NCBI GenBank assembly: GCA_019745555.1
Contig: JAIESX010000035.1
Location: 1-64,000 of the forward strand
DNA length: 64,000 nucleotides
From: Burkholderiaceae bacterium
GTDB lineage: Bacteria > Pseudomonadota > Gammaproteobacteria > Burkholderiales > Burkholderiaceae_C
Direction: 5' to 3'
In this document: positions 13,074-20,861 of the stretch, piece by piece
Layout of the letters: every line of letters starts with the position of its first letter
Numbering within the stretch: position 1 is the stretch's first letter
Position numbers and translations under genes: made by a program
Notes under the pieces: model-generated
Databases searched by the model: none
Seen by the model: only the letters and a program-made list of their open reading frames with translations
Told to the model about the DNA's origin: nothing

Positions 13074-13726
13074 GCCACGGCCTCCCGTGCCCGATCGAGG
13101 TCCAGCACCTGGGCCTCAGGCAGCGCAGCACGCACGCGCGCGTCATGGGTGGCGATGACCAGCGTGGCGCTGCAGCGCTGCGCACTGGCCTGCAGCAGGG
13201 CCAGGGCATCGCGCGCGGCCTCGTCGTCGAGGCTGGCCGTGGGTTCGTCGGCCAGGATCACTTTGGGTTGCAGCAGCACGGCACGCGCCAGCGCCACGCG
13301 CTGCGCCTGCCCGCCCGAGAGCTGCGCGGGCCGGCGCGCTGCCAGCTCGGCCACGCCCAGCGCCTGGAGGGCCGCGGTGATGGCCGCACGGTCCACGGGC
13401 AGGCCGGCGGCGTAATAGACCAGTTCCAGGTTGCCGGCCACGGTCAGGGCGGCGCTCAGGTGCAGTTTCTGCGGCAGAAAGCCGACATGGCGCGCACGCC
13501 AGGCATCGGCCGGCGCGGGGGCGAGAGCGCCCAGGCACTGGCCGGCCACGATGATCTCGCCCGCGGCCGGCGCCATCAGCGCCGCGGCCAGCGCGAGCCA
13601 GCTGGACTTGCCGCTGCCCGAACGGCCGCGCAGCAGCAGCGTCTCGCCCTGGCCCAGCGCGAGGTCGGGAAAGGCCAGGCGTGCGCCGCCCGGGTACTGG
13701 CAAGCCAGGCCACGCGTCGCAATCAC
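13070..13726 (-). CDS. ABC transporter ATP-binding protein
   Basis: A 218-residue ATPase with Walker A GRSGSGKS (34-41), Q-loop around GFLPQKLHL, signature LSGGQAQRVALARA, Walker B VILADEPT and switch His in ATHDARV. It belongs to the LolD/MacB-type branch that partners FtsX-like permeases. It overlaps the end of msrA and the start of the permease gene by 4 nt each. The unit is probably msrA-ATPase-permease-small protein-DUF3299-His-rich protein-TonB receptor. Confidence 0.9.
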   Translation of the reverse strand: MIATRGLACQYPGGARLAFPDLALGQGETLLLRGRSGSGKSSWLALAAALMAPAAGEIIVAGQCLGALAPAPADAWRARHVGFLPQKLHLSAALTVAGNLELVYYAAGLPVDRAAITAALQALGVAELAARRPAQLSGGQAQRVALARAVLLQPKVILADEPTASLDDEAARDALALLQASAQRCSATLVIATHDARVRAALPEAQVLDLDRAREAVA

Positions 13727-14277
13727 GCCCCGGACTCCGGCTTGAGCAGCTCGGCGAACTGTTTCCTGAACTTGGCCACCTTGGGCCCGACGACGAAGGC
13801 GCAGTAGCCCTGGTTGGGATGCTGCGCGTAATAGTCCTGGTGGTAGGCCTCGGCCGGCCAGTAGCTGGCCAGGGGCAGCACCTCGGTGACGATAGGGGCG
13901 TTGAAGATTGCACCCTGCTCCAGCTCGGCAATCAGCAGGCGGGCTTCCTGCTCCTGGGCCGGCGTCGTGAAATACACGGCGCTGCGGTACTGGGTGCCCA
14001 CGTCATTGCCCTGACGGTTGAGCGTGGTCGGGTCGTGGGTGGCGAAGAAGATGCCAAGAAGCTGGCGCACGCTAACCTGGGCCGGATCGTAGACCAGGCG
14101 CACCACCTCGTTGTGGCCGGTGGTGCCGCTGCAGACCTGCTCGTAGCTGGGACGCTCCACATGACCGTTGCTGTAGCCGCTCTCGACATCGAGCACGCCG
14201 CGCACGCGGTCGAAGACGGCCTCGGTGCACCAGAAGCAGCCCGCCCCTAAAACTATCGATTCAGTTTTCTCGGTCAT
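13723..14277 (-). CDS. msrA: Peptide-methionine (S)-S-oxide reductase, 5' end replaced by a mobile element
   Basis: A 184-residue MsrA. The catalytic motif GCFWCTE sits at residues 13-19, followed by GVLDVESGYSNGHVERPSYEQVCSGTTGHNEVVRLVYDP and HDPTTLNRQGNDVGTQYRSAVYF, all typical. It reduces methionine-S-sulfoxide in proteins. The first 12 codons (MTEKTESIVLGA) lie in the integrated element and the following 20 nt are the attachment repeat. The native 12 codons (MSNDHPILVLGG) are found at 20826-20861. The frame and codon count are exactly preserved, so the enzyme should be functional but driven from element DNA. AAGG lies about 9 bp upstream of the ATG. Confidence 0.93.
   Translation of the reverse strand: MTEKTESIVLGAGCFWCTEAVFDRVRGVLDVESGYSNGHVERPSYEQVCSGTTGHNEVVRLVYDPAQVSVRQLLGIFFATHDPTTLNRQGNDVGTQYRSAVYFTTPAQEQEARLLIAELEQGAIFNAPIVTEVLPLASYWPAEAYHQDYYAQHPNQGYCAFVVGPKVAKFRKQFAELLKPESGA
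14222..14241. repeat. attL: 20-bp direct repeat inside msrA
   Basis: TCGGTGCACCAGAAGCAGCC, identical to 20806-20825. Read on the minus strand it encodes the MsrA active-site motif GCFWCTE. Outside this 20-mer the two ends differ, which defines the attachment core. Confidence 0.92.
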
Positions 14278-14371
14278 GCTTTAGAACCTTGTTTTAATTG
14301 ACGTTTTCAGGAATTTGCACGCGCGGAAGTGAAGCAGTAAAATCACACGAAAGATGAAAAATCACTATTTT

Positions 14372-14389
14372 TTTCACACAATTTCCACA
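14372..14389. repeat. Left-end arm-type repeat (TTTCACA pair)
   Basis: TTTCACACAATTTCCACA at the left end of the element matches the right-end sequence at 20706-20723 in 16 of 18 positions and in the same orientation. Each copy holds two TTTCACA-like units 11 bp apart, one helical turn. This is the pattern of integrase arm-binding sites; binding is inferred. It ends 8 bp before the integrase ATG. Confidence 0.5.
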
Positions 14390-14397
14390 CAAAAAAC

Positions 14398-15708
14398 ATG
14401 GCAGAAGCACCCCAGAAGCCCCCTAAGATGCGAGGCATCCAGCAGCTCAAGCGCAGGCTAAAGGATGGTACGACAGCCCTTCACTACAGGGTACAGATTA
14501 AGCGCAAACGGGACAATTTGCATGTTGACAGGCTTTTTGAGGACTTTGAAGAAGCCAGAGAATTCTATTTAGCTAATCTCTCTAAAACCGGACAAGCAAA
14601 AATCAAATTGCTTGAAGAAATTAAAAAAGAGACAGCAGCAAAATTTATCGCAGACTTTCTAAATAATACATTTGAAATGTTCAGCGAAACTTACATAAAA
14701 GAATACATTGAGCCTCAATATAAGCATTTAGACAAAAATACTGCAAGCGGAAAAGCTAAACTTCGCGGGCTTTCAAATACAAAAAGCTTCTTTAAGACCA
14801 TAAATTCAACACTTATCCAAAAAGTTCAGCCAGGTGAGGACTTATCCGATCCGATGCAACGTTTCGCACTGACAGGAAATTCAATTGTCAGGTTTGGAGA
14901 ACTAAAACCAAATGAGATTAATACTTATATTCTTAATGAATATATTAAAGTTAGACTTCAATCAGTTCAACCGGTAACAGTTGAACGAGAATTACAACAT
15001 ATCTCAAATCTCTTTAGAAAGCTTAAGTTTATGGATATTAGACAAAAAAATATCCGCCTTCCAGAGTTTGATAAAGATTTGATATCAGATAAAATTGCAC
15101 AAAGAAAAAGAAAAAACTTTCGAATTAAAAGCTCAGACTTAGACGCAATCAACAAGGCAATTGAAGATTATTCAAATCCTGAATTAGGCTGGATTGTTTC
15201 TCTCATGCTTAACACAGGAGGACGGAGAGCAGAGGTTTGTTTGCTGACTTGGGAGGATGTAAATGAAGAATCTGGAGAAATTCGGTTTTTCGATACAAAG
15301 AACGGCAAAGAAAGAACCGTTTACATGAGCGATGAAGCAAGGAAAGTTATTGAGAGCGTCCGTGCGAATAATAATAAATATGCTGATAATCGCCTATTCT
15401 CTTATACCGTTTTGGGGTTTGATGGAAGCTTCACAAAAATCATTAAGGATCTTTATGATAAAAAACTTATCAGTGAAAAAATAACATCGCATCGCTTTCG
15501 CAAGGAATGTATTAGCCGCCTAGTGCTGAAAGCAAAAGGAAATTATCTTTTACTTGCTGAAATTCTTGGGGTTTCAAATGTTGAAAACCTTGAAAAGAAA
15601 TTTTCAGGTGTTGCAACTGACAAGCCAGATACGGAGAAAGATATTTTGCGCCAGGTTGGACACTCTAGCTCGAACATCACAAAACAACATTACTTTAGCT
15701 TGAAGTAA
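14398..15708 (+). CDS. int: Tyrosine-type site-specific integrase
   Basis: A 436-residue phage-type integrase. Catalytic residues are recognisable: Arg276 in TGGRRAEV, a Lys in the TKNGKERTVYM hairpin, H365-x-x-R368 (HRFR), His422 (GHSS) and nucleophile Tyr432 (HYFSLK). An N-terminal arm-binding/SAM-like region precedes the catalytic domain. AT-rich codon use differs strongly from the host. Located at the left end, divergent from msrA; it should recombine the 20-bp core within msrA. Confidence 0.93.
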   Translation: MAEAPQKPPKMRGIQQLKRRLKDGTTALHYRVQIKRKRDNLHVDRLFEDFEEAREFYLANLSKTGQAKIKLLEEIKKETAAKFIADFLNNTFEMFSETYIKEYIEPQYKHLDKNTASGKAKLRGLSNTKSFFKTINSTLIQKVQPGEDLSDPMQRFALTGNSIVRFGELKPNEINTYILNEYIKVRLQSVQPVTVERELQHISNLFRKLKFMDIRQKNIRLPEFDKDLISDKIAQRKRKNFRIKSSDLDAINKAIEDYSNPELGWIVSLMLNTGGRRAEVCLLTWEDVNEESGEIRFFDTKNGKERTVYMSDEARKVIESVRANNNKYADNRLFSYTVLGFDGSFTKIIKDLYDKKLISEKITSHRFRKECISRLVLKAKGNYLLLAEILGVSNVENLEKKFSGVATDKPDTEKDILRQVGHSSSNITKQHYFSLK

Positions 15709-15770
15709 AATATCCTACAGAAATATTTTTATGTTATAGTTGCACCGTAAATCATTTTTTATTTCTCAAG

Positions 15771-16340
15771 ATGGCAACTTTCATTGAAGAAGCTCAAGCA
15801 ATTCTCAGCCCTGATGAATTCGCAAAACTCAAGTCTCTTGCAATCAAGGCAAGCAATCTTGAGACTACTACAGATGAAGACGACGAGCTTGCAGAGCTCA
15901 AGAGCAAAGTTCAAAAGGCAGTTTTCCAGCGTGAAAAGCTTAAGAGTTTGCAGTTTTTAGCCACAGGTGGGTTTAGTGTGGCTGATGTTCTTACAGCCAT
16001 GAAAGCAGACGCTAAGGAAGTCAAAAAATGGCTCAAGGGTAAGACCACAGAAGCCACCGAAACAACGAGCTTTGTTGTTGGAATTTTCAACGGCAAGGAT
16101 GGAAAAATCGAGATTCGAAGTAATCTCAAATTTGCAGAGCGTAGCATTGCAACTGAGATTGCCAAAGCTGGTGCAAAGAAGTTCGTTGAGAGTCTTAATG
16201 AAGCTGGCAAGAAGTGGCTTGCAGAGTCTCATAAAGCGACCGTCGGCCCCTATAAAGGCAAGGTCATCCACAATAATATTTCAAAAGTTGCAACGCGTTT
16301 CAAATTTGAAAAAACAGCATTACTCAAGTTAGTTTCATAA
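15771..16340 (+). CDS. Unrecognised protein of the mobile element
   Basis: A 189-residue soluble protein, Lys/Glu/Ala-rich. The N-terminal half looks helical (EEAQAILSPDEFAKLKSLAIKASNLE, then EDDELAELKSKVQKAVFQREKLKSL). A middle segment (FSVADVLTAMKADAKEVKKWLKG) may be a small helix-turn-helix; the C-terminal half is mixed. I do not recognise a family. Candidates include a DNA-binding accessory or recombination-directionality factor, without motif support. It follows the integrase by 62 bp in the same direction. Confidence 0.7.
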   Translation: MATFIEEAQAILSPDEFAKLKSLAIKASNLETTTDEDDELAELKSKVQKAVFQREKLKSLQFLATGGFSVADVLTAMKADAKEVKKWLKGKTTEATETTSFVVGIFNGKDGKIEIRSNLKFAERSIATEIAKAGAKKFVESLNEAGKKWLAESHKATVGPYKGKVIHNNISKVATRFKFEKTALLKLVS

Positions 16341-16364
16341 TTAAATTTCAACTATTAAATAAAA

Positions 16365-16385
16365 AAGCCACCGACAACGTGGCTT
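16365..16385. terminator. Bidirectional hairpin between convergent genes
   Basis: AAGCCAC (16365-16371) pairs with GTGGCTT (16379-16385) across a 7-nt loop. A-run on the left and AAATTTTT on the right let it act as a factor-independent terminator in both directions. Confidence 0.75.
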
Positions 16386-16405
16386 AAATTTTTAAATTAT
16401 TCTAT

Positions 16406-17284
16406 CTACAGCACGAGCGCAGACTTTTTCGTGTCCTTGGAGTTCGACTTGCGTCGTCCTCGAAGGATTTTGTCCAGCTCTCCAGCAATCAAGTTACCGC
16501 CTGCGCTGGCTAGTTTAGTGATAGCAGTCTCCAGCTCCGTCTCACTGGTTCCTGCTGTTACCCAGCCTGACATGATCGTCTTGCTTAGTGGCGTCTCCAA
16601 GAGGCGAAATCCTTTCGGAGCCAGCCTATTAGCAATAGATTCCACAGTCAGCTGCGCTGACTTCCCCTCCTCGTTCTTTGAACTTCGGACGGGGTGAATG
16701 GCGCTTATAGCGCCAGAGGGGGAAGTACCTTCCCCCTTATCAGTACTTTCAAGCTTTCGCTTGCCTACAGTATTGAGATGATGAAGATATTGTTTGTATT
16801 GAACTGAATCAGTACTGATAGCAAAGGGATCAAACTCATCCGAGTCAAAATCCACGCGGGTTTCCAGAGGATCGGCATCTGGAGCTTGCTGACACTCCTC
16901 CAGAATCTCCTGTAAAGACGCGGGTTCTGGCGCTTTCACTTCGTCCACATCATTCATGGGTGAGAAGGGAAGCCGAAGCTTCAGGGAATCGTTTTCAAAC
17001 TTGACCTGGGCAACCAAGCCCATGTTTTCCAGCTTCTCTATGAGGTAGCGGGCCTTGTTCCTATCGTATATTTCTGCGGGTGCTGTATTGCGTTTTGGAC
17101 GCGAAACAATTTGCCCCAGCTTCTCGTAGTTTAGTTTTTGATTACGATAACCGCCGACTTGTCCGGTCTTGAAGTTGGCAAGCTTCTTCAATATTAAATA
17201 CATAGTGATCTCGGCAAAGCTTGCCTTGGTCATCAATGCTTCGTACTCTGCCATGTTGAGGGAAATGTATGCTTGTTTTTTCAT
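16406..17284 (-). CDS. Winged-helix-like protein, possible replication/mobilization accessory
   Basis: A 292-residue protein beginning MKKQAYISLNMAEYEALMTKASFAEITMYLILKKLANFKTG. The first 125 residues resemble a winged-helix domain of plasmid replication-type proteins (KLNYEKLGQIVSRPKR, then ARYLIEKLENMGLVAQVKFEN). The rest is acidic and probably flexible, with a second small domain near the C-terminus (LTVESIANRLAPKGFRLLETPLSKTIMSGW). The ATG at 17284 follows GGAGG; a TTG at 17302 is an alternative. It lies 14 bp downstream of the relaxase gene. The replication role is a guess. Confidence 0.65.
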   Translation of the reverse strand: MKKQAYISLNMAEYEALMTKASFAEITMYLILKKLANFKTGQVGGYRNQKLNYEKLGQIVSRPKRNTAPAEIYDRNKARYLIEKLENMGLVAQVKFENDSLKLRLPFSPMNDVDEVKAPEPASLQEILEECQQAPDADPLETRVDFDSDEFDPFAISTDSVQYKQYLHHLNTVGKRKLESTDKGEGTSPSGAISAIHPVRSSKNEEGKSAQLTVESIANRLAPKGFRLLETPLSKTIMSGWVTAGTSETELETAITKLASAGGNLIAGELDKILRGRRKSNSKDTKKSALVL

Positions 17285-17298
17285 TATGTTTTCCTCCC

Positions 17299-18564
17299 TC
17301 AAACCTTCAGCTTCGTGGCTGGTGACTTCACGCCGTTTTCCTCGGGCGTTCCTGCGAGCTTTTGACTGACTTTGCTGGTTGGCTTGACACCAGCCATGGC
17401 AATGATTTCCATCGCCCTTGCAGAGGGCTCGTAGCCCGTGATTTCTTCAGGCTTGTAGGCTCCAGTGAGGACTGCTTGGATAAATACGCGCTCTTTGAAC
17501 TCATCACTTCCAGAGAGATGAATTCCTGGCCACTCCTTCGCTTTTGCCAGACGGAGCATTGCATTAATTTCCTCTGCTGAGCCTGTCATGGCTTTCATTT
17601 GAGAGCCATAGTCCCACACTGCTCCAGGATGAAAGTCCAGCTCTAAACACACGCCGATCTCCGTGTTGGCACGTGCAATGCTGACGAACTCATCCTCAAA
17701 GAGCTGCTGCAACATCTCCAGATATTTTTTTGTGAAGATGTCTTTGTTCTGCTCAGCCTTGTCCTGAGCATCTGTGCTCATTGGCATGGAGATGAACATA
17801 GGCTTGTGACCCATGAGGTCCTGCCAGGTACGTTCCTGAGTCTGTTGGTCTAATTTAATATTGTTTTCATTCATGATTGCCTCCTGTGTAGTTGTTTGAA
17901 TGATTTGTATGGCGGGCACAGGCAAACCTCTTGCCTGCATCGCCTTACTCTGTGGACCGATGTGCCGTCCTGGCAAGCGGTCAATTCCTTGGGCTTCAAG
18001 TGTTCGATGGTCTATCGAGCACTTGGCTCCTGCAACTTTTAATCTGCGGTTGGTGTGGCTCGCCCACTCGGACCGCCACTTCTCCAGCATTTCCTTGCTG
18101 TTCCAGTACCGATTCTTTTTGCCAAACCCTGCGTTATTAATATCGCGTGTAGTGAGCAAGATGTGAGCGTGTGGATTGCCTGGCTTGTCGTGAATGCAGA
18201 CATCGGCAACCATTCCCTGCTTGACGAACTGAGTTGTTATAAATCGATCAAGCAGGATTTCCCGCTGTTTGTGTGAAAGCTCCAGGGGTAGGGCAACCTC
18301 GATCTCCCGAGCGATCTGGGCGTCCTTCCTGACCTCGGATTTCTCTGCGTTATTCCAGAGAGCTTGTCTGTAATGAACCCATGCAGGAGAGCTGGCAGGC
18401 GCAAAAATCTGGCGAAAAATTACTTCGCGTTTTCTGGTGTAGTCAAAGACCAAACCAGTGCGCTCGTCAACGATCTTCTGTCCTGCACGATAGGCAGAGG
18501 CAGCAGTTGCACTGCGTCCTTGTGCACGTGAGATGACCTTTGCATTCAAGTGATATATCGCCAT
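17299..18564 (-). CDS. mobA: MobA/MobL family relaxase
   Basis: A 421-residue MobQ-type relaxase. The N-terminus MAIYHLNAKVISRAQGRSATAASAYRAG closely resembles RSF1010 MobA, with the candidate nucleophilic Tyr in SAYRAG. Motif III is clear (CIHDKPGNPHAHILLTTR). The second half lacks a primase and is of unclear function. It would nick oriT and pilot single-stranded element DNA through a helper secretion system. ATG at 18564 has a strong AAAGGAGG upstream; the longer frame to 18612 runs into oriT. Confidence 0.9.
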   Translation of the reverse strand: MAIYHLNAKVISRAQGRSATAASAYRAGQKIVDERTGLVFDYTRKREVIFRQIFAPASSPAWVHYRQALWNNAEKSEVRKDAQIAREIEVALPLELSHKQREILLDRFITTQFVKQGMVADVCIHDKPGNPHAHILLTTRDINNAGFGKKNRYWNSKEMLEKWRSEWASHTNRRLKVAGAKCSIDHRTLEAQGIDRLPGRHIGPQSKAMQARGLPVPAIQIIQTTTQEAIMNENNIKLDQQTQERTWQDLMGHKPMFISMPMSTDAQDKAEQNKDIFTKKYLEMLQQLFEDEFVSIARANTEIGVCLELDFHPGAVWDYGSQMKAMTGSAEEINAMLRLAKAKEWPGIHLSGSDEFKERVFIQAVLTGAYKPEEITGYEPSARAMEIIAMAGVKPTSKVSQKLAGTPEENGVKSPATKLKV

Positions 18565-18610
18565 TGCCTCCCCTCCTTTCTTCCTCTGCTTCCCCTTTGG
18601 GAAGTTGCAC

Positions 18611-18639
18611 ACGTTGCTTGCAACGTATAAGTGCGCCCT
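18611..18639. other. oriT: oriT of RSF1010/MobQ type
   Basis: A perfect 7-bp inverted repeat (ACGTTGC 18611-18617, GCAACGT 18620-18626) is followed two bases later by TAAGTGCGCCCT (18628-18639). That dodecamer is the conserved nick region of RSF1010/R1162-type origins, where cleavage falls after TAAGTGCG. It lies between the relaxase and the divergent TraD-like gene, as in classic mob regions. Confidence 0.88.
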
Positions 18640-18661
18640 TCGTTCCTTCGGTTTGCTGGAC

Positions 18662-18732
18662 TTGACTCAGTAGATATTTCTGCTAGTTATTAATTGAGTT
18701 ATCAGAAATTTCTGAAAAGTCAAATAACTAGC
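18662..18732. promoter_or_regulatory. Nested inverted repeats upstream of traD-like gene
   Basis: GCTAGTTATT (18682-18691) and AATAACTAGC (18723-18732) are perfect 10-bp inverted repeats. They enclose a 12-bp palindrome CAGAAATTTCTG (18703-18714), and TTGACT (18662-18667) pairs with AGTCAA (18718-18723). A strong AGGAGG follows at about 18739. Likely a controlled promoter for the mob genes or an oriT accessory site. Confidence 0.5.
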
Positions 18733-18749
18733 AAAAACAGGAGGAACTT

Positions 18750-19001
18750 ATGAGCAAGGTGAAGCAGGAAACGATTGAGAAGATGCAACAGCAGAAGGCC
18801 AGGTTGGACGCAAGGATCCAGCAGTTGAGGAACAGACAAACGAGAGAGGAACGAAAAAAAGACACCCGCAGGAAGATCCTTGCGGGTGCCTATTTCATCA
18901 AGCTAATGGGGGGTGACTTAGCTATGGTTGCTAAGCAGATGGATGATGCCGGGCTCCTTCGTTCTGAGGATGCAGCTCTTTTTTCGCAAAGGAAGTCCTG
19001 A
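18750..19001 (+). CDS. TraD/MobC-like mobilization accessory protein
   Basis: An 83-residue basic, coiled-coil-prone protein (IEKMQQQKARLDARIQQLRNRQTREERKKDTRRKILAGAYFI). The RKKDTRRKILAGA segment is the signature of the short conjugal transfer protein TraD family found beside MobA/MobL relaxases. It probably binds DNA at oriT or helps the relaxase. A strong ribosome site lies upstream, and the gene is divergent from the relaxase across oriT. Confidence 0.8.
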   Translation: MSKVKQETIEKMQQQKARLDARIQQLRNRQTREERKKDTRRKILAGAYFIKLMGGDLAMVAKQMDDAGLLRSEDAALFSQRKS

Positions 19002-19028
19002 TCAATTTAAATTTTTATATTTAAAATA

Positions 19029-19787
19029 TTAATTATTAAATCTAAAACTTCCAAATCTTAAGATTCCTTCAGCATTTTTTAAGAACATTGCACTATCGGT
19101 TACATTTATGTTAATTATTTTTCTATTAGTTGTTTTTTCCATAAATGCAGATGGAACAGAGAAAACAATCTCTCCATATTGAAAAGCCCTGTTTACTCGA
19201 AATTCCTCTAATCTCTGAGCGGTGCCTACATCAGTTCTGAATAAATTACTCCATTGATAGTTAGTCAAATCGGCAAATATTCTTTGTCCGTTTAGATTGT
19301 AAAAACCCATAGGAGGCGCTTTAATTCCACTTAAGACATAGACTACCTCAGTGATGTACTCCCTGGGATCAACTGATTTGATATAGCCAGCCGTTCTAAT
19401 ATAGAACTTTTTAGCAGTCTTTATTTTTTCAAATCTACTTACTGCAATAGGTTTGTATTTTTCAATTACCCGAATTCTGTTAAACGAATTTGATAAATAC
19501 TGGCTATCATTTCCGTTTTCGTTAATGAATTCATTTATAGCACACCCCTCCCACTGCTCATCAGTTAAATTAATTCCGGATTTGGAATGGAATAGAAACT
19601 CCATGTCACAATCATATGTGGGCGAGCGTCCATTTTTAAATTTGAATCCCTCTAATATGCCGACTCTTAGATGGATTACTTCATCACCAGTACCTTGAAT
19701 AGATCTACTACCTCCCCACTCAAGCTCCTGACTTGACGCAAAGAAGGAAAGTGAAAATAAAAAAATTGAGTAGAATATTTTATTCAT
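19029..19787 (-). CDS. Exported protein of unknown function, element cargo
   Basis: A 252-residue protein with a signal peptide (MNKIFYSIFLFSLSFFASSQ). The mature part is beta-rich, with two Cys that could form a disulfide (PTYDCDME and WEGCAINEF). No family recognised. Very AT-rich codon use. The ATG at 19787 directly precedes the signal; a TTG at 19802 is an alternative. It lies 22 bp downstream of the lipoprotein gene, so the two probably form a cargo operon. Confidence 0.7.
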   Translation of the reverse strand: MNKIFYSIFLFSLSFFASSQELEWGGSRSIQGTGDEVIHLRVGILEGFKFKNGRSPTYDCDMEFLFHSKSGINLTDEQWEGCAINEFINENGNDSQYLSNSFNRIRVIEKYKPIAVSRFEKIKTAKKFYIRTAGYIKSVDPREYITEVVYVLSGIKAPPMGFYNLNGQRIFADLTNYQWSNLFRTDVGTAQRLEEFRVNRAFQYGEIVFSVPSAFMEKTTNRKIININVTDSAMFLKNAEGILRFGSFRFNN

Positions 19788-19809
19788 AATAGTATTTATC
19801 AATTAAAAA

Positions 19810-20586
19810 TTAATATTCGTGGATTACGTTACCTTTATCATCCAACAAACTAATCTTTACAATTTCAGCTGTAATTAGAGGAGATTTTTTTGTCATTCTT
19901 CTGCCACCGTGGAGCTCATAATCGACATCTTCTAGCCCACTTCCAGCAACATAAAAATAAAGTTTTGCCGTAAAGTTTCCGTTTGTTTTCGATCGCAATG
20001 CTTCTATTTTTCTTGCAACTTCTTCATTCTTTACTTCCATTACCGTAAATTGATCGTCATTATTAAACGCCAATCTAATGCCTGTGCCATCATTTCCGCT
20101 GAAAAATGCTCTGCCACTATAAGAGTTTCTCCCAGGAAATGTTTTGCTTAGAAATGACTTCTTTTCAAAATCGTACTTCTCGATTTGATATCCAATCATT
20201 TCATAATAGTAGCGAATCTCTTTTGCCGCAGAGATTTCGGCATCAATTTTAGACTTCAGATTGTTTAGTCTGTCTTTTTTCTTGAATTCGTCAGTTTCCG
20301 AATGAAAAGTTTTGTCTATTGCGCCGACTAGTTTTTCATATTCAATCTCAACCCCGGGAAATGAGTAATATATGAATCCCGCCTTCTCAAATCTTTTATA
20401 GTTTTCGTAAGGAAAACTTTTATCAGCCTTAGGTAGTGCAGACTTAGGGGCACTCTGGGCCGGAGAGATAGCGCCTTTATCAGCGTCTTTCTTGCTATCA
20501 AGTGAGGCCTTGTCGCTTTCTTTCGAACATCCAGCAAGAACCAAAGAAGTTATTGCAACCGCAAAAAGCTTTCTAACGTGACGCAT
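19810..20586 (-). CDS. Lipoprotein of unknown function, element cargo
   Basis: A 258-residue lipoprotein with signal and lipobox (VRKLFAVAITSLVLAGCSKES). A low-complexity Lys/Ser/Ala linker follows, then a domain containing YENYKRFEKAGFIYYSF, ETDEFKKKDRLNNLKSKIDAEISAAKEIRYYYEM and a beta-rich C-terminal half. I do not recognise the domain. GGAGG precedes tandem ATGs at 20589 and 20586; the second has better spacing. With the next gene it forms a two-gene envelope cargo; an exclusion, stress or surface role is possible but unsupported. Confidence 0.7.
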   Translation of the reverse strand: MRHVRKLFAVAITSLVLAGCSKESDKASLDSKKDADKGAISPAQSAPKSALPKADKSFPYENYKRFEKAGFIYYSFPGVEIEYEKLVGAIDKTFHSETDEFKKKDRLNNLKSKIDAEISAAKEIRYYYEMIGYQIEKYDFEKKSFLSKTFPGRNSYSGRAFFSGNDGTGIRLAFNNDDQFTVMEVKNEEVARKIEALRSKTNGNFTAKLYFYVAGSGLEDVDYELHGGRRMTKKSPLITAEIVKISLLDDKGNVIHEY

Positions 20587-20589
20587 CAT

Positions 20590-20805
20590 TCCTCCGTTCG
20601 TAATATGAAATACCCTAAGGGCTTATCCACGGACAATTTTGTGGACATTTACTGTAACGAGCGAAGATTGGTTTCGTTTTTCGGGTAAACCCGCGGCCAA
20701 ATTTATTTCACATAATTTTCACATTTTTCGTGAAGCACTTCATTAAGAAAAACTAATTTTCTTATAAATCATATACTTAGAAGCATATTGAAAAAATCTA
20801 CAATT
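20590..20805. other. Non-coding right end of the element
   Basis: About 216 bp without a convincing gene. It should hold the cargo promoter and integrase-binding sites. A short inverted repeat (TCCAC... with GTGGA around 20626-20643) and the arm-type repeat at 20706-20723 are visible. Confidence 0.6.
20706..20723. repeat. Right-end arm-type repeat (TTTCACA pair)
   Basis: TTTCACATAATTTTCACA matches the left-end copy (14372-14389) at 16 of 18 positions, with the same 11-bp internal periodicity. Its position about 80 bp from attR suits an integrase arm site. Confidence 0.5.
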
Positions 20806-20861
20806 TCGGTGCACCAGAAGCAGCCGCCACCGAGAACCAGGATGGGATGATCGTTGGACAT
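20769..20861 (-). pseudogene. msrA: Displaced native msrA 5' fragment
   Basis: On the minus strand from ATG at 20861 the frame reads MSNDHPILVLGG then GCFWCTE, which is a normal MsrA N-terminus in host-like GC-rich sequence. After the 20-bp repeat it runs into element DNA and stops at TGA (20769-20771), leaving a 30-residue remnant. Its 12 codons before the repeat equal in number those now supplied by the element. Excision would rejoin it to the body of msrA. Confidence 0.92.
20806..20825. repeat. attR: 20-bp direct repeat
   Basis: TCGGTGCACCAGAAGCAGCC, identical to attL at 14222-14241. The flanking bases on the chromosome side (GCCACCGAGAACC) continue the native msrA coding sequence; on the element side the sequence is AT-rich. 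Confidence 0.92.

What the first reader, a model, noticed from the sequence alone, without database searches (positions are those of the whole stretch)
14222..20825. 6.6-kb integrative mobilizable element that targets the active-site codons of msrA
A tyrosine integrase, MobQ relaxase, oriT and TraD-like gene sit in an AT-rich block bounded by a 20-bp direct repeat (TCGGTGCACCAGAAGCAGCC) that encodes MsrA GCFWCTE. Using a catalytic motif as attachment core exploits the most conserved DNA in the gene and suggests a wide host range. Elements that enter the 5' end of coding genes are known (SXT in prfC), but I know of none in msrA with this gene set.
Basis: partly seen in the sequence, partly recalled or inferred. 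Interest (0 to 1): 0.92.

Follow-up and report, generated by a model that had tools for sequence, protein, structure and literature searches.

The report
Mobile element capping the msrA gene
A 6.6-kb piece of mobile DNA has inserted itself into the active-site codons of a bacterial repair gene (msrA) and supplies a replacement beginning for the gene, and relatives of its insertion enzyme, carrying quite different cargo, do the same in other bacteria.

Summary
An exact 20-bp repeat (14222-14241, 20806-20825) bounds an AT-rich element with a tyrosine integrase, MOBQ relaxase and MOBQ-type oriT. It lies in the GCFWCTE codons of msrA. The gene now starts with 12 element-encoded residues (MTEKTESIVLGA); the host's own start (MSNDHPILVLGG) is stranded beyond the right repeat. 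The joined flanks align to an uninterrupted same-genus locus over 2000 bp at 93.1%. In an order-wide sample, 3 of 4 other genomes with homologous integrases (E<=1e-20) carry them beside msrA; two show both ends, the same codons and their own replacement start. Payloads differ: MOBQ here, a TrwC relaxase in Gallionella, filamentous-phage genes plus MobC/relaxase in G120. Against exclusivity, 4 of 8 distinct integrases found are not at msrA, including two Janthinobacterium ones 71-73% identical to G120's. Re-capping is known (SXT/prfC, IMEVchUSA3/dusA), and a Lactobacillus prophage att site covering the msrA 5' end is in print. Excision, transfer and msrA expression were not testable. Real element; new target and integrase lineage for a known principle.

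The parts
14222..14241 (-). attL core: 20-bp repeat = codons GCFWCTE of msrA (msrA sense GGCTGCTTCTGGTGCACCGA)
20806..20825 (-). attR core: second copy of the 20-bp repeat
13723..14277 (-). msrA as it now stands: host body (13723-14241) plus element-encoded 5' end
   Evidence: PF01625 E 3.1e-65; TIGR00401 195.5 bits, cut-off 108.1
14242..14277 (-). element-supplied msrA cap: start codon and 12 codons in all, MTEKTESIVLGA
   Evidence: differs from the N-terminus of the same-genus msrA genes
20826..20861 (-). displaced original host msrA 5' end, MSNDHPILVLGG
   Evidence: identical to the msrA start of same-genus loci L021 and L022
14372..14392 (+). putative arm-type integrase sites, left arm (TTTCACACAATTTCCACACAA)
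   Evidence: best left/right 20-mer 3 mismatches, not reached in 40 shuffles of the right arm
20706..20723 (+). putative arm-type integrase sites, right arm (TTTCACATAATTTTCACA)
14398..15708 (+). tyrosine integrase, divergent from msrA
   Evidence: PF00589 E 1.6e-16; phrog_1 E 2.3e-32; alignment to two msrA-linked homologues
15771..16340 (+). 189-aa protein of unknown function downstream of int
   Evidence: no family above cut-off; no plasmid match; low-confidence model
16406..17302 (-). 298-aa protein of unknown function, overlapping the relaxase 3' end by 4 bases
   Evidence: weak phrog_13103 match E 6.3e-4; no plasmid match; model mean pLDDT 39.1
17299..18612 (-). MOBQ relaxase (MobA/MobL domain plus LPD7); start probably near 18564
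   Evidence: PF03389 E 7.1e-71, PF18821 E 1.1e-11; NF041496 255.9 bits
18611..18639 (+). oriT: palindrome ACGTTGCTTGCAACGT (18611-18626) followed by the MOBQ nic consensus TAAGTGCGCCCT (18628-18639)
   Evidence: consensus as printed in PMC3832669; hairpin
18677..18737 (.). 15-bp inverted repeat pair between oriT and the small ORF, possible operator or promoter region
   Evidence: I11
18750..19001 (+). 83-aa small protein, possible mobilization accessory
   Evidence: only sub-threshold matches: DUF3847 E 0.0019, TraD E 0.032, phrog_24342 of unknown function E 2.4e-4; no plasmid match
19029..19802 (-). 257-aa cargo protein, unknown
   Evidence: no family match
19810..20589 (-). 259-aa lipoprotein-like cargo protein (DUF4852-like)
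   Evidence: sub-threshold DUF4852 E 0.0032; weak phrog_478 (recombination directionality factor) match over residues 8-38 only, E 0.0037; 23.8% identity to an annotated DUF4852 protein on a Cupriavidus plasmid

Best explanation
It is a 6.6-kb integrative mobilizable element inserted by its tyrosine integrase into the msrA 5' end. Shown from sequence: the attachment site is the msrA active-site region; across three elements the bases shared by both copies narrow to TTCTGG[T/G]GC (codons Phe-Trp-Cys/Gly); the element brings its own in-frame msrA start, so the gene is re-capped rather than broken, and the host's original start is left at the far end. Inferred: the integrase crosses attP with attB inside those bases, binding arm-type repeats on both sides; msrA is now transcribed from the divergent int-msrA region of the element; excision restores attB; the circle is nicked at oriT by its MOBQ relaxase and leaves through a helper's conjugation apparatus. 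The int gene plus cap behaves as a module that relatives share while their payloads differ.
For: Exact repeat at a GC boundary. The joined flanks align end to end to same-genus G1280 (L021), 93.1% over 2000 columns with one gap, and without gaps over the 200-bp junction at 94.5%; msrA there begins with the displaced peptide. Of 26 genus genomes searched only the window's own has this integrase. Three of 4 other integrase genomes at E<=1e-20 are at msrA; G120 and G251 both have duplicated cores in the same codons and their own caps. For G251, 6 of 11 msrA loci from same-genus genomes align on both sides of the joined junction in order. MOBQ relaxase above cut-off, oriT consensus. Arm repeats at both ends: not reached in 40 shuffles for the window and G251, reached in 2 of 40 for G120.
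Against: No excised circle, transfer or expression data exist here. The only sigma-70-like site found in 14200-14420 faces int, not msrA, so the replacement msrA promoter is unproven. No convincing excision factor: one weak directionality-factor match (E 0.0037) lies on the signal region of the lipoprotein-like ORF. For G120 none of 3 family relatives aligned on the displaced side, and 5 of 11 G251-genus msrA loci did not align on both sides. G077's integrase has 3 in-frame stops and its second end lies beyond the contig. Close relatives of the integrase in Janthinobacterium use a different site, and 4 of 8 distinct integrases found are not at msrA.
Confidence: 0.88

Rival explanations
1. A decayed, immobile island: once mobile, now fixed at msrA.
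For: Single copy, seen in 1 of 26 genus genomes; several ORFs of unknown function; no convincing excision factor.
Against: Integrase and relaxase frames and the oriT consensus are intact, the 20-bp core copies are identical and the cap is in frame.
Confidence: 0.15
2. The linkage to msrA is incidental: the integrase family has loose specificity and often lands in gene 5' ends.
For: Janthinobacterium relatives (71-73% identical to G120's) use a site spanning the ribosome-binding site and start codon of another small gene (read); G056 is beside tRNA-Val; 4 of the 8 distinct integrases found (window, G120, G251, G077 against G056, G772 and two Janthinobacterium) are not at msrA.
Against: The four msrA-linked integrases are diverged (five of six pairs 33-36% identical, the sixth 48%), yet share the target gene, and three share the same codons and a self-encoded cap. 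In the tree they stand with the Janthinobacterium pair nested beside G120 (94/96 for the whole group, short of the program's star; the window's row is a long branch and its place is unsure).
Confidence: 0.1
3. Not mobile by conjugation: a phage satellite or inovirus relative that keeps a relaxase as a replication nickase.
For: The G120 element with a homologous integrase carries filamentous-phage genes.
Against: Pfam on nine proteins of the window (seven of them the element's) and PHROGs on six of the element's seven ORFs gave no credible phage structural gene (two holin matches at E 0.02-0.04 lie inside the integrase), and there is a MOBQ oriT with a MOBQ relaxase.
Confidence: 0.06

Closest known systems
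dusA-specific integrative elements (IMEVchUSA3; PMC8409611, passages read)
   Same: Insert in the 5' end of a conserved gene and supply a new N-terminus; mobilizable; a new promoter was shown there by lacZ fusion.
   Different: Target is dusA; SGI1-like gene set mobilizable by IncC plasmids. Here the target is msrA, with a MOBQ relaxase; the integrases were not compared.
SXT in prfC (as cited in PMC8409611)
   Different: SXT is a self-transmissible ICE; this element has no type IV secretion family above cut-off among its seven ORFs.
Prophage PhiM247 of Lactobacillus crispatus (PMC10763512, passages read)
   Same: Its attB/attL includes 96 nt of the msrA 5' end; attP differs from attB by 15 changes and a deletion, so it too may carry its own cap (my inference).
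   Different: A 42.5-kb siphovirus of a Firmicute; the crossover codons are not stated in the passages I read; its integrase was not compared directly.
MOBQ mobilizable plasmids (RSF1010 archetype; PMC3832669, passage read)
   Same: MOBQ relaxase and oriT consensus.
   Different: Those replicate as plasmids; this is integrated. Among the 5000 best plasmid records (a limit of the search) relaxase identity is below 60%.

Membership tests
Integrative mobilizable element (IME) | encodes its own integrase | tested here: met
   PF00589 E 1.6e-16
Integrative mobilizable element (IME) | discrete insertion with direct repeats and an empty site in relatives | tested here: met
Integrative mobilizable element (IME) | relaxase and/or oriT | tested here: met
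Integrative mobilizable element (IME) | no complete conjugation apparatus of its own | tested here: met
   no VirB4 or other secretion family above cut-off among its seven main ORFs (one sub-threshold TraD match, E 0.032)
Integrative mobilizable element (IME) | excision as a circle and helper-dependent transfer | not testable with these tools
   needs cells
MOBQ relaxase family | score above the curated MobQ cut-off | tested here: met
   255.9 against 200 bits
MOBQ relaxase family | MOBQ oriT consensus near the relaxase gene | tested here: met
   TAAGTGCGCCCT at 18628-18639; consensus
Elements that replace the 5' end of their target gene (dusA/prfC type) | target ORF restored in frame with a new N-terminus | tested here: met
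Elements that replace the 5' end of their target gene (dusA/prfC type) | element supplies a working promoter for the target | tested here: inconclusive
   no sigma-70-like site facing msrA found
Elements that replace the 5' end of their target gene (dusA/prfC type) | integrase of the dusA or prfC integrase families | not tested
   those integrase sequences were not fetched
Integrative conjugative element (ICE) | own type IV secretion system | tested here: not met
   none above cut-off among the ORFs

The most novel reading that the evidence does not exclude
A tyrosine-integrase lineage in this order uses the catalytic codons of msrA as its main attachment site, and its int-plus-cap cassette is a shared integration platform adopted by unrelated payloads (MOBQ and TrwC-type mobilizable elements, and a filamentous-phage-like element with its own mobilization genes). 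Because the new msrA start lies beside int and the arm sites, the host's methionine-sulfoxide repair gene comes under the element's control while it is integrated.
Probability: 0.35. Interest if true: 0.68.

Novelty: new variant of a known kind. Interest (0 to 1): 0.52.

Why it matters
It adds msrA's active-site codons to the protein-gene 5' ends used as attachment sites by mobilizable elements, with a clear logic: the codons are highly conserved, lie only about 12 codons from the start, and let an element re-cap the gene instead of killing it. It shows one integrase lineage at two msrA paralogue types (GCFWC and GCFWG) while its payload changes completely, and it puts an oxidative-damage repair gene under a mobile element's upstream region, which can be tested directly.

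Tried and rejected
Rejected: chance repeat (0 in 100 shuffles; empty site); msrA as cargo of the element (its body matches same-genus msrA at up to 97%); ICE (no secretion family above cut-off).

Led nowhere: viral-contig scans with A1, P0001, a DNA pattern, A3 and A2 gave no confirmed relative; phages gave no match for the window integrase and 24 records for G120's, none covering 80% of it; in plasmids none of 171 records covered 80% of the window integrase. Plasmid searches with three ORFs gave nothing. Structure models of two unknown ORFs were too poor to use (mean pLDDT 39.1 and 54.5), so no fold search was run. A re-draw of the order (389 genomes) gave G251, G120, G077 and G056 again and nothing new. 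The 189-aa protein and its positional counterpart in G120 are not similar.

Literature: six searches asked about msrA or methionine sulfoxide reductase as a target. They list 10 distinct papers; I read passages of 6 (PMC10763512, PMC8115907, PMC6209633, PMC10269605, PMC9854640, PMC5529391) and none of the other 4 (PMC11464305, PMC9699202, PMC5839586, PMC12724294). In those passages only PMC10763512 (att site over the msrA 5' end) and PMC8115907 (Streptococcus pyogenes prophages between yesN and msrA) describe integration at or beside msrA; no mobilizable element there. Four further searches were on other points. Passages only were read of PMC8409611, PMC3832669, PMC10333310, PMC10011098, PMC11389934, PMC5704250, PMC5357655, PMC4701971 and PMC6035254; the last four hold no 'msr' or 'methionine sulfoxide' in the main text.
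Full report
Observation. The 20-mer is present exactly twice, at the stated coordinates, with no chance expectation, and the DNA between is AT-rich. Reading the - strand, the left copy is part of an intact msrA frame (13723-14277; PF01625; TIGR00401) and encodes GCFWCTE. That the cysteine of GCFW is the catalytic one is established knowledge of MsrA, recalled and not tested here; the protein matches 30 distinct PDB sequences, all named methionine sulfoxide reductases.

What the ends show. At the left end the gene reads MTEKTESIVLGA-GCFWCTE; beyond the right copy, in the same frame, lies MSNDHPILVLGG-GCFWCTE, cut off by element DNA. Same-genus loci L021 and L022 have msrA starting MSNDHPILVLGG. 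I joined the window's flanks in a script: they align to L021 (G1280) from end to end, 2000 columns at 93.1% with one gap, and over the 200-bp junction at 94.5% without gaps. So the host gene's first 12 codons were displaced and replaced by 12 element codons. None of the 29 relatives' msrA loci tested (L021-L049, about 3.5 kb each) has this integrase, and only 1 of 26 genus genomes, the window's own, has it anywhere at E<=1e-25.

Gene content. Integrase; a 189-aa and a 298-aa protein of unknown function; a MOBQ relaxase above the curated cut-off; an oriT with the printed MOBQ consensus and a neighbouring palindrome that folds (z -2.13; 7 of 200 shuffles fold as well); an 83-aa ORF whose 'TraD' likeness is sub-threshold (E 0.032); two cargo ORFs, one lipoprotein-like. 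No secretion family passes its cut-off. Against the PDB the integrase matches three chains: XerA, HP1 integrase and a XerC-like recombinase.

Relatives. In 399 genomes of the order, 5 match at E<=1e-20 including the window's own. Of the 4 others, 3 (G251, G120, G077) have msrA beside the integrase and 1 (G056) does not; G056 is beside a tRNA-Val gene. G077's integrase is broken by three stops. Samples of 398 genomes from the phylum and 369 from the class added none at msrA. Among 158 genomes of G251's family one further partial match (G772) is not at msrA within its 3.6-kb locus. One pattern scan of genome contigs gave 3 loci: the G251 locus, a Gallionella metagenome assembly, and two Janthinobacterium. 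In all, 4 of 8 distinct integrases are at msrA.

Same codons, own caps, other payloads. In G120 the core copies are 11.8 kb apart, in G251 10.35 kb. Reading up to GCFW, each has an element cap (MENQQVKKLETITLGG; MPNNQHSIAYLSG) and a displaced host start (MSNQLATATLAG; MNTNQTAVAYLAG). The bases shared between both copies in all three elements narrow to TTCTGG[T/G]GC. TTCTGG is present in 38 of the 43 msrA loci I held, the window's exact 20-mer in 11 of 43 (the loci were found with a pattern that already demands GCFW codons). G251 targets the GCFWG paralogue. For G251, 6 of 11 msrA loci from same-genus genomes align on both sides of the joined junction in order, 2 on the msrA side only and 3, of another msrA type, not at all; for G120 none of 3 family relatives align on the displaced side. 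G120's element carries filamentous-phage genes (GPA-type replication protein, a virion structural protein, a minor head protein, a Zot-domain protein, a secretin matching protein IV of M13) and MobC plus a relaxase; whether this is one element or a phage nested in another I cannot tell. G251's has a TrwC relaxase (MOBF by recalled classification), a protein with a prepilin methylation motif, a DNA methylase and a helix-turn-helix protein with a sub-threshold BsaWI-nuclease match.

Against exclusivity. The Janthinobacterium integrases are 71-73% identical to G120's. No msrA lies in their 8-kb loci and the msrA genes of those genomes are on other contigs. Their repeat (ATGGTTGTTTCCTGATTTTCAAA in L018; 15 matching bases in L019) lies elsewhere, apparently covering the ribosome-binding site and start codon of a small gene (my reading), near a gene I recognise by eye as rpoH. 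In an eight-row tree (two broken rows included) the msrA and Janthinobacterium group stands apart from G056 and G772 (94/96, short of the program's star), with the Janthinobacterium pair nested beside G120 (100/100); the window's own row is a long branch of unsure place. I read this as a change of target, but with so few rows it is an inference. A resemblance of the Janthinobacterium repeat to the first bases of the msrA core (GGYTGYTTC) was noticed after the fact and not tested.

Mechanism. Repeats near both ends look like arm-type integrase sites: TTTCACAYAATTTYCACA in the window, ATTCACCAA in G251, TTGMCAAA in G120. The best left/right 20-mer was not reached in 40 shuffles for the window and G251 and was reached in 2 of 40 for G120. 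The left arm lies between int and the new msrA start, so integrase binding could affect both genes' promoters; this is untested. The one sigma-70-like site found there faces int. A directionality factor was not found beyond one weak match on a lipoprotein signal region (E 0.0037).

Known work. The 5'-end re-capping principle is in print for dusA and prfC (PMC8409611, passages), and 5'-end insertions by streptococcal ICEs are reported in ftsK, rbgA and ebfC (PMC4701971, passages). msrA itself is in print as an attachment region for a Lactobacillus prophage (PMC10763512, passages). Six searches on msrA as a target gave no integrative mobilizable element there in the listings or in the 6 of 10 listed papers whose passages I read; most subscription papers are not in that library.

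Verdict. Observation confirmed; interpretation partly supported: right about the element and target, too strong on host range and on novelty of the target.

Noticed in passing
L013:4054-12964 (G120 element): Filamentous-phage structural and replication genes lie with MobC and a relaxase between one pair of msrA att cores, with a single integrase: either a mobilizable inovirus or a nested element.
   Followed up: partly
L018:9170-15620 and L019:4030-7100: Janthinobacterium elements with near relatives of the G120 integrase have a repeat that appears to span the ribosome-binding site and start codon of a small gene; the L012/L019 integrase has Ser where the others have the first Arg of the GxRRxE motif and may be inactive.
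   Followed up: partly
L015:9353-11411 (G251 element): DNA methylase next to a helix-turn-helix protein with a sub-threshold BsaWI restriction-nuclease match: a possible restriction-modification cargo.
   Followed up: no
window:14398-15708 and homologues: The integrases have an ILGxxNV stretch where XerA has ILGHASV, then an extra segment of roughly 25 residues before the GH...Y end: a possible hallmark of this integrase family.
   Followed up: no
window:19810-20589: Lipoprotein-like cargo distantly related to a DUF4852 protein on a Cupriavidus plasmid and to hypothetical proteins on Burkholderia, Paraburkholderia and Pseudomonas plasmids (6 records).
   Followed up: no
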